NCBI RefSeq assembly: GCF_000687835.1
Contig: NZ_JHYB01000004.1
Coordinates: 62,001-126,000, forward strand
DNA length: 64,000 nt
Direction: 5' to 3'
From: Haploplasma modicum ATCC 29102
Lineage (GTDB): Bacteria; Bacillota_I; Bacilli_A; Acholeplasmatales; Acholeplasmataceae
A program made the translations under genes and the position numbers. Each line of letters opens with the position of its first letter. The stretch's first letter is position 1. The notes beneath the pieces are model-generated. The model saw only the letters and a program-made list of their open reading frames with translations. It was not told the origin of the DNA and did no database searches. Below, piece by piece: positions 2,596 through 7,992 of the stretch.

Positions 2596-2620
2596 TAAAA
2601 AAAAGGAGATCAGTCTCCTT
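2596..2620 (-). terminator. terminator after the LRR protein gene
   Basis: Minus-strand stem AAGGAGA / TCTCCTT with loop CTGA, followed by an eight-base T run. The stem overlaps the stop codon of the LRR gene. Confidence 0.85.
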
Positions 2621-3413
2621 ATTTTTTATGTTTAACGTAATTAGGTTCAGCTACTAGTCTATCCTTAATCAAATGTAAAATTTTATTTTGATCTGCTTTT
2701 CTCTTAATTTTTAAGTATGGATCATTATTATTAGTTTCAATTTGCTGTTGGTACTTATCAACATTTACCATTTCAACTTTTAAAACGAAATCTTTATGGT
2801 CTCTTTTAACCCTAGGAAAACTTCTTACCTTCTCAACTGCTTCCTTTGCATTTTCAGCCATAACTGCATAAGTAATTGGCATATACATATTTCTTCCGAC
2901 ATGACCACATTTAACAGTTACTAAAAAATGATTATTACCATTTTTATTTCTAATAAGTTTATCATTTTCTATGTCTTCTTGATTATAATAGACAATTTGA
3001 GCACTGCAAGTAGTTGGTCGCTTTAAGGATATAGGTGATTTTATAATTTGTTCTTTTGTCCAACCATAAAAAGCATCAGGATGCACTTCTAGTACACTTT
3101 CTGGTAAAGTTAACTCTTTGATTGAACTGCAATTTTTAAAAGCTCTTGCTTTAATTGTAACAACATTATCGGGTAAAGTTATATTTTCAAGTGAGGTACA
3201 ATTTTCAAAACAAGCTTCAGTAATCACAGATAATTTACTATCTTTTTCAAAGTAAACTTTTTTTAATTTGTTATTATTATAGAATAATCCATGACTAATT
3301 TTTGTTATATTTTTATGAATACTTATTTTTTTAATTTGTTTATGTTTTTTGATAAATTCATCAGATAAATGAGTTACTTCTCTAGGTACCGTAACATTTT
3401 GATTATTATTCAT
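2619..3413 (-). CDS. BspA-type leucine-rich repeat protein
   Basis: About 264 residues. Residues about 25-115 hold BspA-like LRR_5 repeats (ITEACFENCTSLENITLP, KARAFKNCSSIKELTLP). They are followed by a second, unrecognised domain beginning near HFLVTVKCGHVGRNMYMP and a Lys-rich tail. I start it at ATG 3413, which overlaps the end of the upstream gene by 8 bases. A longer reading adding a hydrophobic MIILLFTLMEFLII stretch is possible, but that stretch is out-of-frame coding sequence of the neighbour and would mimic a signal peptide. Without it the protein has no signal or anchor and is probably cytoplasmic. It is translationally coupled to the nuclease gene. Function unknown. Confidence 0.75.
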   Translation of the reverse strand: MNNNQNVTVPREVTHLSDEFIKKHKQIKKISIHKNITKISHGLFYNNNKLKKVYFEKDSKLSVITEACFENCTSLENITLPDNVVTIKARAFKNCSSIKELTLPESVLEVHPDAFYGWTKEQIIKSPISLKRPTTCSAQIVYYNQEDIENDKLIRNKNGNNHFLVTVKCGHVGRNMYMPITYAVMAENAKEAVEKVRSFPRVKRDHKDFVLKVEMVNVDKYQQQIETNNNDPYLKIKRKADQNKILHLIKDRLVAEPNYVKHKK

Positions 3414-4395
3414 GATTATCAAGAATTCCATTAAAGTGAATAACAAAATTATCAAACTTTCCTGTACGTTTTAAATTGTTCTTAATTATTGTTTGTTGAA
3501 AATCAAGTTCATTAAAATCAATATGAAGTCTTGCTTCCTTTTTATCACTAATATCAAAAGATCTTTTTTCTATTAATCTATTTAACATAAAGTCTTCTAA
3601 TTTCTCATTTACATCTGTTTTTAGTAGGTCTTCATAGGTTATCCACTCATCTTCAAACCTTGTCAGTAAATGAGTTTTTATATCATGTTTTTCCATTATT
3701 TCTTTAAGTTTAAAATATTTATATAAAACATTTTTTATTGATAAGTCTTTTAAATCTTTTACTTCAACAAGAATTAAATGATTATGGTAAGTTTGAATTA
3801 AATAATCAATTGTATATTTTTTTTTATTATTTTTTCCATAATTTAGCTTATAGGGTTGTTCAATGATATCCTTTATGTATCCTGAGTTTGCAAGATCATT
3901 AATAAAATCTAATTCAAGCCCCGACTCATATCCCACTTTCTTATTACCATACAAGAGTTCTAAATCAGTAAATCCACTTTTTGAAGACGCTTCTGATTCA
4001 TCCAAATCACGTACTGGAGCAAAATTATTAATGATATCGCTGTAAGATTTATAAACACCTGGTTCAAGACCAAATATCTTATCAAAGTTATTTCTTAAAT
4101 CTGCATAGTCTACATCAGCAATTTTAAAATAGCTTTTTCTTTTCCTTACATTTTCAACAGCAATAATGCTTGTTTCCTCTAGCATTTCACTTGTTACTTC
4201 TCTTAAATTTTCATGTGATAAGTTAGGAAAAACTCCAAATGATTTAGAATCAATGTATTTTCCTGATACTGCACCATTGGTAATACCTTTTAAAACAGAT
4301 CTCATTGAAACTGGGTAAGGTAGATCCCCATTTACCTCAAACTCCTTAATTAATTCAAGTATATGATACTTAATTTTTTTATTAATATCTGTCAT
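3406..4395 (-). CDS. TnsA-like PD-(D/E)XK nuclease with N-terminal winged-helix region
   Basis: A 329-residue protein of two parts. Residues about 1-95 look like a winged-helix DNA-binding module of the RQC-minor kind (SMRSVLKG ... FGVFPNLSHENLREVTSEMLEE). From about residue 153 there is a restriction-like fold core: ESGLE, then YTIDYLI, then LVEVKD. This spacing (E, D, ExK) is what TnsA-like endonucleases show. ATG 4395 has an AGGGG ribosome site. The gene is followed by an overlapping LRR gene. No TnsB/C or other transposition gene is nearby, so it may be a stand-alone nuclease of a defence or repair system. Domain calls are by motif only; the enzyme activity is inferred. Confidence 0.6.
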   Translation of the reverse strand: MTDINKKIKYHILELIKEFEVNGDLPYPVSMRSVLKGITNGAVSGKYIDSKSFGVFPNLSHENLREVTSEMLEETSIIAVENVRKRKSYFKIADVDYADLRNNFDKIFGLEPGVYKSYSDIINNFAPVRDLDESEASSKSGFTDLELLYGNKKVGYESGLELDFINDLANSGYIKDIIEQPYKLNYGKNNKKKYTIDYLIQTYHNHLILVEVKDLKDLSIKNVLYKYFKLKEIMEKHDIKTHLLTRFEDEWITYEDLLKTDVNEKLEDFMLNRLIEKRSFDISDKKEARLHIDFNELDFQQTIIKNNLKRTGKFDNFVIHFNGILDNHE

Positions 4396-4591: not shown

Positions 4592-4618
4592 TAAAAAAAA
4601 TAAAGGAAACCCTTTATT
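4592..4618 (-). terminator. terminator after the LOR-family gene
   Basis: Minus-strand stem AATAAAGG / CCTTTATT with loop GTTT followed by a run of Ts, directly after the stop codon at 4618. It closes the four-gene cassette that begins at 7874. Confidence 0.85.
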
Positions 4619-5100
4619 TATTTGTATCTGTCATTATGTATTATTGTATCTATACCTATTAATATTGCTAGTATTAAGTCTGAATATTCCCCCTTAATAT
4701 CTAATTCATAAGTATCTCCCCATGATAGTATTTGTTTTTTAACACTTGCAACCTTAACATTATCTTTTAAAACGTTAAATTTATATTGTAATAAACTTCC
4801 ATCTATCACATATGAATTACTTCTTGTTTTTATCTGAAGTCTTGGATAAAAGAAAGTGAAATTTTTCTTAATAATAACTTCTTCATTTGTTCTATGATCT
4901 ATTACATATACTCTAGGTAGAATAGTTACAATCTTATGTTTAAAAGTAAAAATTAGTTTTTTGTTTTTATCATACATTTTCATCATACCACTTAAGGAAA
5001 ATAGTGTTCCTTCTGTATAAAAAAGTAGATTTTGATTTTCATCGTATAACTTATATTTATCAACAAGTGAGAAAACTTTTTGTTTCATATATATTTTCAT
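4618..5100 (-). CDS. LURP-one-related (LOR/YxjI-like) family protein
   Basis: 160 residues with the beta-rich repeat pattern of LOR proteins, a tubby-like fold: MKQKVFSLVDKYKLYDENQ, then LFYTEGTLFSLSGMMKMYD, RVYVID, LQIKTRSNSYVIDG. The ATG at 5100 is chosen because GGAGGTGG lies just upstream; the 22-codon longer form has no support. That ribosome site is made of the Gly codons that end the preceding gene, and the two genes are separated by one base. In eukaryotes the fold binds membrane phospholipids; the bacterial role is not established. Last gene of the cassette with the Gly-tailed protein, the ATP-grasp enzyme and the DUF350 membrane protein. Confidence 0.75.
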   Translation of the reverse strand: MKIYMKQKVFSLVDKYKLYDENQNLLFYTEGTLFSLSGMMKMYDKNKKLIFTFKHKIVTILPRVYVIDHRTNEEVIIKKNFTFFYPRLQIKTRSNSYVIDGSLLQYKFNVLKDNVKVASVKKQILSWGDTYELDIKGEYSDLILAILIGIDTIIHNDRYK

Positions 5101-5101
5101 T

Positions 5102-5863
5102 CTATCCACCTCCGTAGAAAGTTCTACCACCACTATATGCATCAGGTATAACGCCACCAAATCCACCAGCCGAGTTTCTTCTAAGCCCTAATAGTACTAA
5201 AAATCGATAAAGATTGCTTTTATATTTCATTGGTTTTTTCACCTTTATTTCTTTTAGACTAAGTGCATTTATAATCTTAATCCCACCTGATTGGTAATTG
5301 TATAAAATATGGGATAGGTCTTCTAGAATATTTTTTTTATCAAAATTAGTAAAAAGAAAGATCTTTGTTATTCCTTTTTCTTTTAGATACATTAAAGATG
5401 GCATATCTTGTTTAAATATACTCCATCTATTATCAAAAATATTACCTTCTTTTTTATCCTTAAAGCTCATGCGATTTGCATCAAGTAAAAAAGCGGGATT
5501 TGCATCTTTTCTAATAATTTTATTTTTTAAAATATATGAACCATGATATAGCGCTTCTTCTAATTCACTTAGTGATATTGCATTTTTATTACTCTTGCTA
5601 CTTACTGAGTTATAAAGTGGGATAGGTCTAAACCCAATATCACTTAACACTAGTCCTTGTTTTAGTGATTTAACGCCATCTAGATCAACAATACATATTG
5701 CATCTTTACTATATATTAAATCACTGTTTAAATCACTTCCTAGATTATAATTTAATTGCATACTACTAAATTCATTCATATTTGCAAACATAACTGGTTT
5801 TACCCATTTAGTCCATTCTGATTCATCATTAGCCCAAACTTTATAAACTTCTAATTTATCCAT
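5102..5863 (-). CDS. unknown protein with Gly-rich C-terminal tail, partner of ATP-grasp ligase
   Basis: 253 residues from ATG 5863, which has GGAGGATT upstream; the longer frame runs through the end of the ATP-grasp gene and is unlikely. The body (WANDESEWTKWVKPVMFANM ... IFLFTNFDKKNILEDLS) matches no family I know. The last 22 residues are distinctive: SAGGFGGVIPDAYSGG, then RTFYGGG at the very end. No signal peptide or membrane segment. It overlaps the ATP-grasp gene by 8 bases. As I recall, proteins encoded beside glutathionylspermidine-synthase-like genes in E. coli (YgiB/YjfM) also end in Gly-rich tails. I infer, without proof, that this tail may be the substrate of the ligase. Confidence 0.6.
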   Translation of the reverse strand: MDKLEVYKVWANDESEWTKWVKPVMFANMNEFSSMQLNYNLGSDLNSDLIYSKDAICIVDLDGVKSLKQGLVLSDIGFRPIPLYNSVSSKSNKNAISLSELEEALYHGSYILKNKIIRKDANPAFLLDANRMSFKDKKEGNIFDNRWSIFKQDMPSLMYLKEKGITKIFLFTNFDKKNILEDLSHILYNYQSGGIKIINALSLKEIKVKKPMKYKSNLYRFLVLLGLRRNSAGGFGGVIPDAYSGGRTFYGGG

Positions 5864-7073
5864 TTGAATCCTCCTTATAAATAAGTACTGGAATATCGAT
5901 TGCTTTATTATCGATTCTAGGACTTTTACTAATTCTTGCATATAATCCAGATGAATTATCATTTATACTAAATACACCAAGACATAAATGGAAAATTTCA
6001 TTATCTGTGGTTTTTAGTGGAACACTTTCAAATCTCTCTTGAGCAATCCAATCTTTAGGATATTTCTTAACAGCTTTTTTAATTGTTTTATATTCTTTAT
6101 CGGTAATTGCTTCCTTAATGCTTATTCCCTCACCAACACGGCCTAAAACCGGTTTAAATATATAATTTGAGTATTTGTCTTTATTATTATTAAACTCTTT
6201 AATACTGATAGTATTTGGCAGCATTTTTTTCCATGTCTTTAATTCTAAATTTAGTTTATCAAAATAAAGTGGTACATTCTTACTTTGCGATAAAATATTT
6301 ACAGGATGGTTACATGAAGTAATACTATTTGAAAAATATCCACTATAATTGTACTTCTTACTTAAATTATCAAGCCATTCAAGTGGAAAGAATCTAAAAA
6401 TTGCATCCATATTTTCTTCTTCTAAAACATTAAAAACTATCTTGTTCTCATTAAATACTAAATGCTCTGGGGCATTATAAAATGATTTAAGTCCCATACT
6501 TTCAAAATAATCACCTAAAAACTGCATCACTTGTCTATCATCAGAGTAAGATGTTGCATGAACAAATGAAATATTTTTAATATTTTTGTTAACAGCCATA
6601 AATGATTCATAAAGACTTTTTCCTAAATTATAAGGAACATCACCAATTTTTACATATTTTTTAGCAATCAAAGGAAACAGTGAACTCTCAGCCAGACCTC
6701 CTGGTACATCACTATTTACTTCAGAGATCATCCAACCTTTTGTAGTTGGATGAAAGTCATATCTATTTAAATTAACATTATCACCAAAATTATAATCATC
6801 AATTTTTTTTAAATATTTAGTAATTTTTCTTGGTAAATTAAGTTTGTTAATTAACTTTTTATTATCTAAAAAAGCTTTTTCAATTTCTCTAGTCTCTAGA
6901 CTTAAAGCTTTGACTAAATTATTGATTTCATCATATGTTTTCTCATCAATGAGTAAAACATACTCAGATACTGTATTACTATCTTCAACCTGAGGATCCC
7001 ACTTATATGCATTAAATATTACATCAGTTTTATAATCATTATATAATTTTTCATCAATTTTTATTAGTTTCAT
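5856..7073 (-). CDS. glutathionylspermidine synthase-like ATP-grasp ligase
   Basis: 405 residues of the GSP_synth (ATP-grasp) family, the same family as E. coli YjfC/YgiC and the Gss C-terminal domain. Seen: SEVNSDVPGGLAESS (about 119-133), which matches the conserved E-x-N-x-D-x-P segment, and FKPVLGRVGEGISI, which supplies the ATP-binding Lys and Gly-rich loop, then DWIAQERFE. The amidase half of full-length Gss is absent. The family joins an acid to an amine with ATP; the substrate here is unknown. ATG 7073 is chosen with AGGTG just upstream; a GTG at 7079 is possible. It lies 6 bases after the DUF350 gene and overlaps the next gene by 8 bases. Confidence 0.85.
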   Translation of the reverse strand: MKLIKIDEKLYNDYKTDVIFNAYKWDPQVEDSNTVSEYVLLIDEKTYDEINNLVKALSLETREIEKAFLDNKKLINKLNLPRKITKYLKKIDDYNFGDNVNLNRYDFHPTTKGWMISEVNSDVPGGLAESSLFPLIAKKYVKIGDVPYNLGKSLYESFMAVNKNIKNISFVHATSYSDDRQVMQFLGDYFESMGLKSFYNAPEHLVFNENKIVFNVLEEENMDAIFRFFPLEWLDNLSKKYNYSGYFSNSITSCNHPVNILSQSKNVPLYFDKLNLELKTWKKMLPNTISIKEFNNNKDKYSNYIFKPVLGRVGEGISIKEAITDKEYKTIKKAVKKYPKDWIAQERFESVPLKTTDNEIFHLCLGVFSINDNSSGLYARISKSPRIDNKAIDIPVLIYKEDSNG

Positions 7074-7079
7074 ATTCAC

Positions 7080-7874
7080 CTACATTAAAAGTTTAACAAA
7101 ATCAAAGAGATCAGATAGATATAATAAGGAGATAACTGAAAAACCTAAATATACTAGTCCAATCGTAAATGATAATGTTTTACTTGTGCTATTTTTGAAA
7201 ATAAGTTCTATAACTATTGAAATAATTATTAGAATAATGGCTGGCCAAAAAATTAAGAATTCTACAAATGTATGTTCAAGGGAAGTCCAATTGCCACTTG
7301 CTGCTTTACCAAGAATTAAAGATAGGCCAAGAACTAACATGGAAAATCTAATAGCTAAACTTAAGTTGTGATCTGATATGATTTTATCGAGAATTTTTGT
7401 TGTTTTATTTAAAATCATAATTAACAATATAAAGGCAATTAAACCAAGCGAAGATGCTACTATTACTGTCCAAAATCCTGGTCCTTCTCCAACATTTGCA
7501 AAGGAGTATATTAATCCAAGACCTATCATCACTCCTGATACTGTTAGAGCTGTTGCTTTATTGTTACTGTTAAGAGCATCATCAATCCATGAGATATTTA
7601 AAAACATAAAGATCAAATGATTAGTTAGATTTGTAAAAGCAAACCCTAAAACAATATAATAAAATATATAAAATTGTGAAGTTACTACATCACTTGCTGC
7701 AAATGATGTAGTCGTATAAAAGTAAATAACAAATAATATTACTGGTGTTAAATAAAAGAATCTTTTTACAAAACGATGATTACCAATATCCCAAATTTTA
7801 TATACTCGGTAATACCACTTATAAAAAAATTGTAAGGTTAAAAATATTGATAAAACAAAGACTATCATTTCCAT
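7080..7874 (-). CDS. DUF350 family multi-pass membrane protein (YjfL-like)
   Basis: 264 residues, almost wholly hydrophobic, with about eight membrane segments. It can be read as two repeats of the DUF350 unit; the first is clear in DDALNSNNKATALTVSGVMIG and LIYSFANVGEGPGFW, the second in SLAIRFSMLVLGLSLILGKAASG. The ATG at 7874 is preferred over a GTG at 7886 because the ribosome site GAGGG sits between them. First gene of a cassette running DUF350, ATP-grasp, Gly-tailed protein, LOR. DUF350 with a YjfC-type ATP-grasp gene is a known conserved association (E. coli yjfL-yjfC), usually linked to envelope stress. Confidence 0.75.
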   Translation of the reverse strand: MEMIVFVLSIFLTLQFFYKWYYRVYKIWDIGNHRFVKRFFYLTPVILFVIYFYTTTSFAASDVVTSQFYIFYYIVLGFAFTNLTNHLIFMFLNISWIDDALNSNNKATALTVSGVMIGLGLIYSFANVGEGPGFWTVIVASSLGLIAFILLIMILNKTTKILDKIISDHNLSLAIRFSMLVLGLSLILGKAASGNWTSLEHTFVEFLIFWPAIILIIISIVIELIFKNSTSKTLSFTIGLVYLGFSVISLLYLSDLFDFVKLLM

Positions 7875-7965: not shown

Positions 7966-7992
7966 ACAAAAAAGAGTCATTTTCATGACTCT
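7966..7992 (-). terminator. terminator downstream of the small membrane-protein pair
   Basis: Minus-strand stem AGAGTCAT / ATGACTCT with a four-base loop and a TTTTTT run. It lies about 185 bases beyond the stop of the 116-residue membrane protein. The 300-base gap from 7875 to 8176 holds this hairpin and the promoter region of the DUF350 cassette; no other feature is seen there. Confidence 0.75.

What the first reader, a model, noticed from the sequence alone, without database searches (positions are those of the whole stretch)
4618..7874. DUF350 / ATP-grasp / Gly-tailed protein / LOR cassette: a possible protein-tail ligation system
Four tightly coupled genes share one transcript ended by a terminator at 4592. 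Seen directly: the overlaps (8 bases, 6-base gap, 1-base gap), the GSP-synthase-type ATP-grasp motifs, the multi-helix DUF350 protein, the LOR fold, and a C-terminal tail with GGFGG, YSGG and a final GGG. Known: ATP-grasp genes of this family associate with DUF350 genes (E. coli yjf cluster). Inference: the ligase modifies the Gly-rich tail or joins it to a membrane amine, with DUF350 as membrane partner and LOR as lipid-side sensor. This four-part form, with LOR and without PspA, is one I do not recall as described.
Basis: partly seen in the sequence, partly recalled or inferred. Interest (0 to 1): 0.72.

Follow-up and report, generated by a model that had tools for sequence, protein, structure and literature searches.

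The report
Glycine-tailed protein with polyamine-type ligase
A small bacterial operon pairs a membrane protein and a glutathionylspermidine-synthetase-like ligase with an undescribed protein whose conserved glycine tail matches the tails beside E. coli's peptide-spermidine ligases, so the ligase may cap protein ends with a polyamine; this has not been tested in cells.

Summary
Four tightly packed minus-strand genes are real: DUF350 (7080-7874), a GSP-synthetase-type ATP-grasp ligase (5856-7073), a 253-residue protein ending GGFG...YGGG (5102-5863) and LOR (4618-5100), with a plausible terminator after LOR.

The core is three genes. Across 82 complete homologues from about 12 phyla, the 253-residue family matches no Pfam or NCBIfam model. 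Sixty carry the tail (LxRN[AS][AT]GGFGxx[IV]P...G; last residue Gly in 51). DUF350 adjoins 42 of 43 tailed loci with enough flank and 0 of 19 tailless ones. Unrelated DUF1190 proteins beside E. coli YgiC/YjfC, which RefSeq names peptide--spermidine ligases, carry the same tail. The ligase keeps the GspSA active-site positions in 77 of 77 sequences; its nearest solved folds are YgiC, YjfC and GspSA.

Best explanation: the ligase activates the tail's C-terminal Gly and joins it to a polyamine-like amine, with DUF350 as membrane partner. This is inferred, not shown.

Against it: one clade of 21 homologues lost tail and DUF350 but kept an intact ligase, mostly beside homospermidine synthase. LOR adjoins the ligase only in this genome, so the four-part form is local. 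New variant of a known kind.

The parts
7080..7874 (-). DUF350 membrane protein, 264 aa, at least 6 hydrophobic helices by a simple scan
   Evidence: (PF03994 E 3e-8)
5856..7073 (-). GSP-synthetase-type (YgiC/YjfC-like) ATP-grasp ligase, 405 aa
   Evidence: PF03738 E 1e-21; top Foldseek hits YgiC 7uk8/7uka, YjfC 7uk6, GspSA 2io7-2io9
5102..5863 (-). Gly-tailed protein, 253 aa, undescribed family, no TM segment found; carrier of the tail
   Evidence: no Pfam or NCBIfam family; globular part mostly pLDDT over 90, tail disordered
5105..5179 (-). conserved C-terminal tail, residues 229-253 (RNSAGGFGGVIPDAYSGGRTFYGGG); GGFG at 5156-5167; C-terminal Gly = proposed ligation point
   Evidence: conservation; low pLDDT; only stretch aligning with E. 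coli YgiB
4618..5100 (-). LOR (LURP-one-related) protein, 160 aa; co-located with the ligase in this genome only, as sampled
   Evidence: PF04525 E 2e-12; not found in other loci
4594..4619 (-). intrinsic-terminator-like hairpin followed by T run
   Evidence: -7.7 kcal/mol, z -2.3
7973..7992 (-). terminator-like hairpin upstream of DUF350, likely ending the preceding transcript and so bounding the operon

Best explanation
The core is a three-gene module: a DUF350 membrane protein, a GSP-synthetase-type ATP-grasp ligase and a cytosolic protein with a disordered GGFG...G tail. The ligase binds the tail, phosphorylates the C-terminal Gly carboxylate with ATP/Mg2+ and joins it to the primary amine of a polyamine or similar amine. 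This would repeat on a protein what GspSA does to the Gly carboxylate of glutathione and what YgiC/YjfC are reported to do to peptides. The capped, positively charged tail would then engage DUF350 at the membrane. Shown: gene linkage, tail conservation, intact active-site residues, the predicted fold match of the ligase, and tail-DUF350 co-loss. Inferred: the reaction on this tail, the amine, and the DUF350 contact. LOR is a local passenger or add-on of unknown role.
For: The ligase matches PF03738. A profile of the family finds only YgiC, GspSA and YjfC in the PDB, and its model's best fold hits are YgiC, YjfC and GspSA, TM about 0.7. Positions equivalent to GspSA R316, D318, E330, N332, D334, E392 (as D), K533 and R598 are kept in 77 of 77 relatives, and D389 is D or E in all (their roles are from memory of the GspSA structures). 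K-12 RefSeq names YgiC and YjfC peptide--spermidine ligases, after Pederick 2023 as cited in PMC12568646. Their neighbours YgiB and YjfM end RGGFG...SMGG and RGGYG...HWGG. Of ten DUF1190 proteins on other proteobacterial replicons, eight have GGFG...GG ends and two have variants ending GS. The only alignable stretch between the new family and YgiB is this tail (short, so not significant by itself). In the new family 51 of 60 tails end in Gly and 6 in Ala, like the Gly end of glutathione. The tail is predicted disordered. DUF350 adjoins 42 of 43 tailed loci and 0 of 19 tailless ones, and the seven tailless genomes tested lack it genome-wide. In the class sample the family's ligase is found only beside the tail protein; the one other PF03738 hit is a different ligase beside a glutamate-cysteine-ligase-like gene. 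The tailless clade pairs the ligase with homospermidine synthase, which keeps a polyamine link. The window genome has no second protein with both GGFG and a terminal Gly tail.
Against: A clade of 21 homologues, and separately the G075 variant, keep an intact ligase without the GGFG...G tail, so the tail cannot be the only possible substrate. The window genome has no spermidine-synthase homologue, so any polyamine must be imported or be something else. Identity to YgiC/YjfC is low (12-16% in the structural alignment) and the tree branch to them is long. GspSA E391 falls in a two-residue deletion here. DUF1190 proteins look like exported lipoproteins while this carrier looks cytosolic. No biochemical data exist for this family.
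Confidence: 0.5

Rival explanations
1. The tail is not a substrate but a docking arm: it binds DUF350 (or bridges DUF350 to the ligase) without covalent change, and the ligase makes a separate small polyamine conjugate.
For: The tail tracks DUF350, not the ligase, within this family: 42/43 versus 0/19 loci, and DUF350 is absent genome-wide in seven tailless genomes. In G075 a four-TM segment is fused to the tail-protein domain and DUF350 is absent, as if the membrane part replaced the docking arm.
Against: DUF1190 proteins keep the tail beside a ligase with no DUF350 next to it (E. coli ygiBC; Rhodobacter, Loktanella, Sulfitobacter and Paracoccus replicons). Conservation of the very last Gly is more than a docking motif needs. 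The tail-DUF350 correlation rests on about two independent losses.
Confidence: 0.27
2. The ligase makes a free polyamine-peptide metabolite and the tail protein is an enzyme or sensor for it; the tail only regulates.
For: The tailless clade keeps the ligase and gains homospermidine synthase. The globular domain is the part kept everywhere.
Against: Does not explain the matching tail on unrelated DUF1190 proteins or the conserved terminal Gly.
Confidence: 0.13
3. The GGFG arm is a phosphate-binding lid, like the C-terminal motif of dUTPase, that closes over a nucleotide in the ligase or its own domain.
For: The window genome's own dUTPase-like protein ends RLGGFGSSGI (identified from memory of the dUTPase C-terminal motif). 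Arg and small residues flank GGFG in the tail.
Against: dUTPase lids need no conserved terminal Gly, whereas the variable 10-29 residues after GGFG here still end in Gly or Ala. The globular domain shows no recognised nucleotide fold.
Confidence: 0.07
4. Four unrelated genes packed by chance in a compact genome.
For: LOR is present only here, and no fourth gene recurs beside the triad.
Against: The triad is syntenic in about 12 phyla, including archaeal MAGs.
Confidence: 0.03

Closest known systems
E. coli ygiBC and yjfLMC (DUF1190 protein + YgiC/YjfC peptide--spermidine ligase, with DUF350 YjfL)
   Same: GSP-type ATP-grasp ligase beside a protein with an RGG[FY]G...GG C-terminus; DUF350 in the yjf operon; same ligase fold and active-site positions
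   Different: Carrier is DUF1190, with an unrelated body and lipoprotein-like N-terminus; ligases share little sequence; the E. coli yjf operon adds PspA, DUF2170 and DUF2491; no LOR
E. coli GspSA glutathionylspermidine synthetase
   Same: Fold and the residues that bind Mg2+ and the Gly carboxylate; joins a C-terminal Gly to spermidine (established)
   Different: Two GSH-binding Ser (335, 337) are Val/Gly here; no amidase domain; the proposed substrate is a protein tail
SpermGS-ATPgrasp / DUF350 / DUF1190 operons of the PSP survey (PMC11237479)
   Same: ATP-grasp ligase of GSP type with YjfL-family DUF350 and a small partner; variants without PspA are described there
   Different: The passages read do not mention this tail-protein family, the tail motif or LOR

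Membership tests
GSP-synthetase-type ATP-grasp (PF03738; YgiC/YjfC) | Profile match above the curated cut-off | tested here: met
   78.1 bits versus cut-off 29.3
GSP-synthetase-type ATP-grasp (PF03738; YgiC/YjfC) | Fold of YgiC/YjfC/GspSA | tested here: met
   Top Foldseek hits of the predicted model are 7uk8, 7uka, 7uk6, 2io7-9, prob 1.00, TM about 0.7
GSP-synthetase-type ATP-grasp (PF03738; YgiC/YjfC) | R316, D318, E330, N332, D334, E392 (as D), K533, R598 (GspSA numbering) | tested here: met
   77/77 relatives including the window protein; E391 has no counterpart
Glutathionylspermidine synthetase proper | GSH-binding Ser335/Ser337 and amidase domain | tested here: not met
   Val and Gly at those sites; no amidase domain
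Peptide--polyamine ligase | Joins a peptide C-terminus to a polyamine | not testable with these tools
   Needs biochemistry
ygiBC/yjfMC-type system | DUF1190 partner protein | tested here: not met
   Tail protein has no Pfam match; only the tail aligns with YgiB
ygiBC/yjfMC-type system | GG[FY]G...G-COOH tail on the protein encoded beside the ligase | tested here: met
   GGFG and terminal Gly (compare)
DUF350 (YjfL) family | PF03994 match and multiple TM helices | tested here: met
   34.2 bits versus cut-off 26; at least 6 hydrophobic segments
PspA-linked envelope-stress operon | PspA/CesT or band-7 gene in the operon | tested here: not met
   None among the four genes; no recurrent extra gene beside tailed loci

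The most novel reading that the evidence does not exclude
A widespread C-terminal protein modification: dedicated carrier proteins of at least two unrelated families (this undescribed family and DUF1190) bear a GGFG...G tail whose last Gly is amidated with a polyamine by a GSP-type ATP-grasp ligase, and DUF350 is the membrane receptor for the capped tail.
Probability: 0.35. Interest if true: 0.87.

Novelty: new variant of a known kind. Interest (0 to 1): 0.68.

Why it matters
YgiC and YjfC are annotated as peptide--spermidine ligases, and DUF350 is a domain of unknown function. A conserved tail shared by two unrelated neighbours of such ligases, across many phyla, names a concrete candidate substrate (the C-terminal Gly of the tail) and a candidate reader (DUF350). 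If true, polyamines are attached to protein ends in many bacteria and some archaea, and the idea can be tested with peptide assays and intact-mass spectrometry. The tail protein is also a family without a Pfam or NCBIfam model and without a clear match among solved folds.

Tried and rejected
A single-sequence scan for relatives in genome contigs found none; an alignment query was needed. The weak HAD-like Pfam hint for the tail protein (E 0.15) was rejected: no support in 65 relatives or in the fold search (best E 0.05, TM about 0.2). Anti-phage defence rejected: no PADLOC match. LOR as a core part rejected: no LOR in six related tail-protein genomes or in the wider loci. The best PotA-like hit in the window genome is below cut-off and its neighbourhood looks like sugar metabolism, so polyamine import is undecided. 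DUF2207 in the tailless clade as a replacement Gly-tail carrier: linked in 17/17 loci with enough sequence, but DUF2207 Gly tails are general and mostly do not end in Gly, so kept as a lead only. The Pfam DUF350 model misses divergent members, so a family alignment was used instead. The Pederick 2023 and Sui 2012 papers are not in the library, so which peptides were tested there is not known to me.

Full report
Observation. Domain calls: DUF350, GSP_synth and LOR, all above Pfam cut-offs; the 253-residue protein matches no family. A hairpin with a T run follows LOR and another terminator-like hairpin lies upstream of DUF350, which fits a four-gene unit. No RNA data exist here.

Homologues. In genomes related to the window's, the tail protein is rare: 3 of 120 relatives, and 6 of 395 in a class sample with a profile (both counts include the window's own genome). 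A scan of GTDB-species genomes with a five-member alignment returned 80 loci from Bacillota, Mycoplasmatota, Elusimicrobiota, Spirochaetota, Synergistota, Kiritimatiellota, Verrucomicrobiota, Planctomycetota, Acidobacteriota, Chloroflexota, Myxococcota and Bathyarchaeota. One Pseudomonadota MAG (L085) groups tightly with Planctomycetaceae in the ligase tree and may be contamination. The search patterns lay in the globular domain, so tail conservation was not selected for by them, but only the best 80 of 116 loci were kept. Many are MAGs; isolates include Enterococcus termitis, Breznakiella homolactica and Geminisphaera colitermitum.

The tail. Of 82 complete proteins, 60 have G[GT][FY]G near the end; 51 of these end in Gly and 6 in Ala. 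Counting from the first Gly of GGFG, Leu at -6 (56/60), Arg at -4 (54/60), Asn at -3 (45/60) and Pro at +7 (54/60) are conserved. The structure model is confident in the globular part and disordered in the tail. The globular part has no convincing fold match in PDB or viral models.

Linkage. Order is DUF350-ligase-tail protein in 49 loci; loci with all three genes in another order are two. DUF350 is beside 42 of 43 tailed loci with enough flank and 0 of 19 tailless ones (Fisher p 5e-15, but not corrected for shared ancestry). Six genomes of the tailless clade, and G075, lack it entirely. The tailless set is one clade of 21 plus the G075 variant, so the correlation rests on about two independent losses. 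No other gene recurs beside tailed loci. LOR lies beside the ligase only in the window genome.

Ligase. The profile finds YgiC, GspSA and YjfC; the predicted fold matches them best. Catalytic positions are intact in tailed and tailless relatives alike. Some positions differ consistently between the two sets, such as 105, 173 and 342; 105 and 173 lie next to active-site motifs, which may mean a changed substrate. The tailless clade has homospermidine synthase downstream in most loci.

Link to known systems. RefSeq labels YgiC and YjfC peptide--spermidine ligases, citing work known to me only through reference lists. Their DUF1190 neighbours end RGGFG...GG and RGGYG...GG. Of ten DUF1190 proteins on other proteobacterial replicons, eight end GGFG...GG and two have variants ending GS; several sit beside a ligase without an adjacent DUF350. 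Profile comparison aligns the new family with YgiB only at the tail. Two unrelated bodies with one tail beside one kind of ligase is the main argument that the tail, and its Gly end, is what the ligase acts on.

Limits. No experiment was possible. The amine is unknown; no spermidine synthase was found in the window genome. The tailless ligases show that the enzyme can exist without this tail. The final GGG codons here double as a Shine-Dalgarno sequence for LOR. I rate the covalent-tail reading at 0.5 and a non-covalent docking arm next at 0.27.

Noticed in passing
3406-4395 and 2619-3455 (-): A TnsA-like-N endonuclease-domain protein gene, with a BspA-type leucine-rich-repeat protein gene just downstream on the same strand, lies beyond the LOR terminator.
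   Followed up: no
5102-5114 (-): The last codons of the tail (GGA GGT GGA) also read as a Shine-Dalgarno sequence for the LOR gene, which starts just after the stop codon.
   Followed up: partly
L065, L068-L097 (tailless loci): Tailless ligase loci carry homospermidine synthase in most cases and a convergent DUF2207 membrane protein in all 17 with enough downstream sequence.
   Followed up: partly
L005:9417-10712 (G075): Tail-protein domain fused to four TM segments and an Arg/aromatic/Gly tail, in a genome with no DUF350 found.
   Followed up: partly
L162:1485-1928 (-), G000 contig C7 near 7068: The window genome's dUTPase-like protein ends RLGGFGSSGI, the same GGFG on an unrelated enzyme.
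   Followed up: partly
L004:4172-4504: A YolD-like gene lies just upstream of DUF350 in G025.
   Followed up: no
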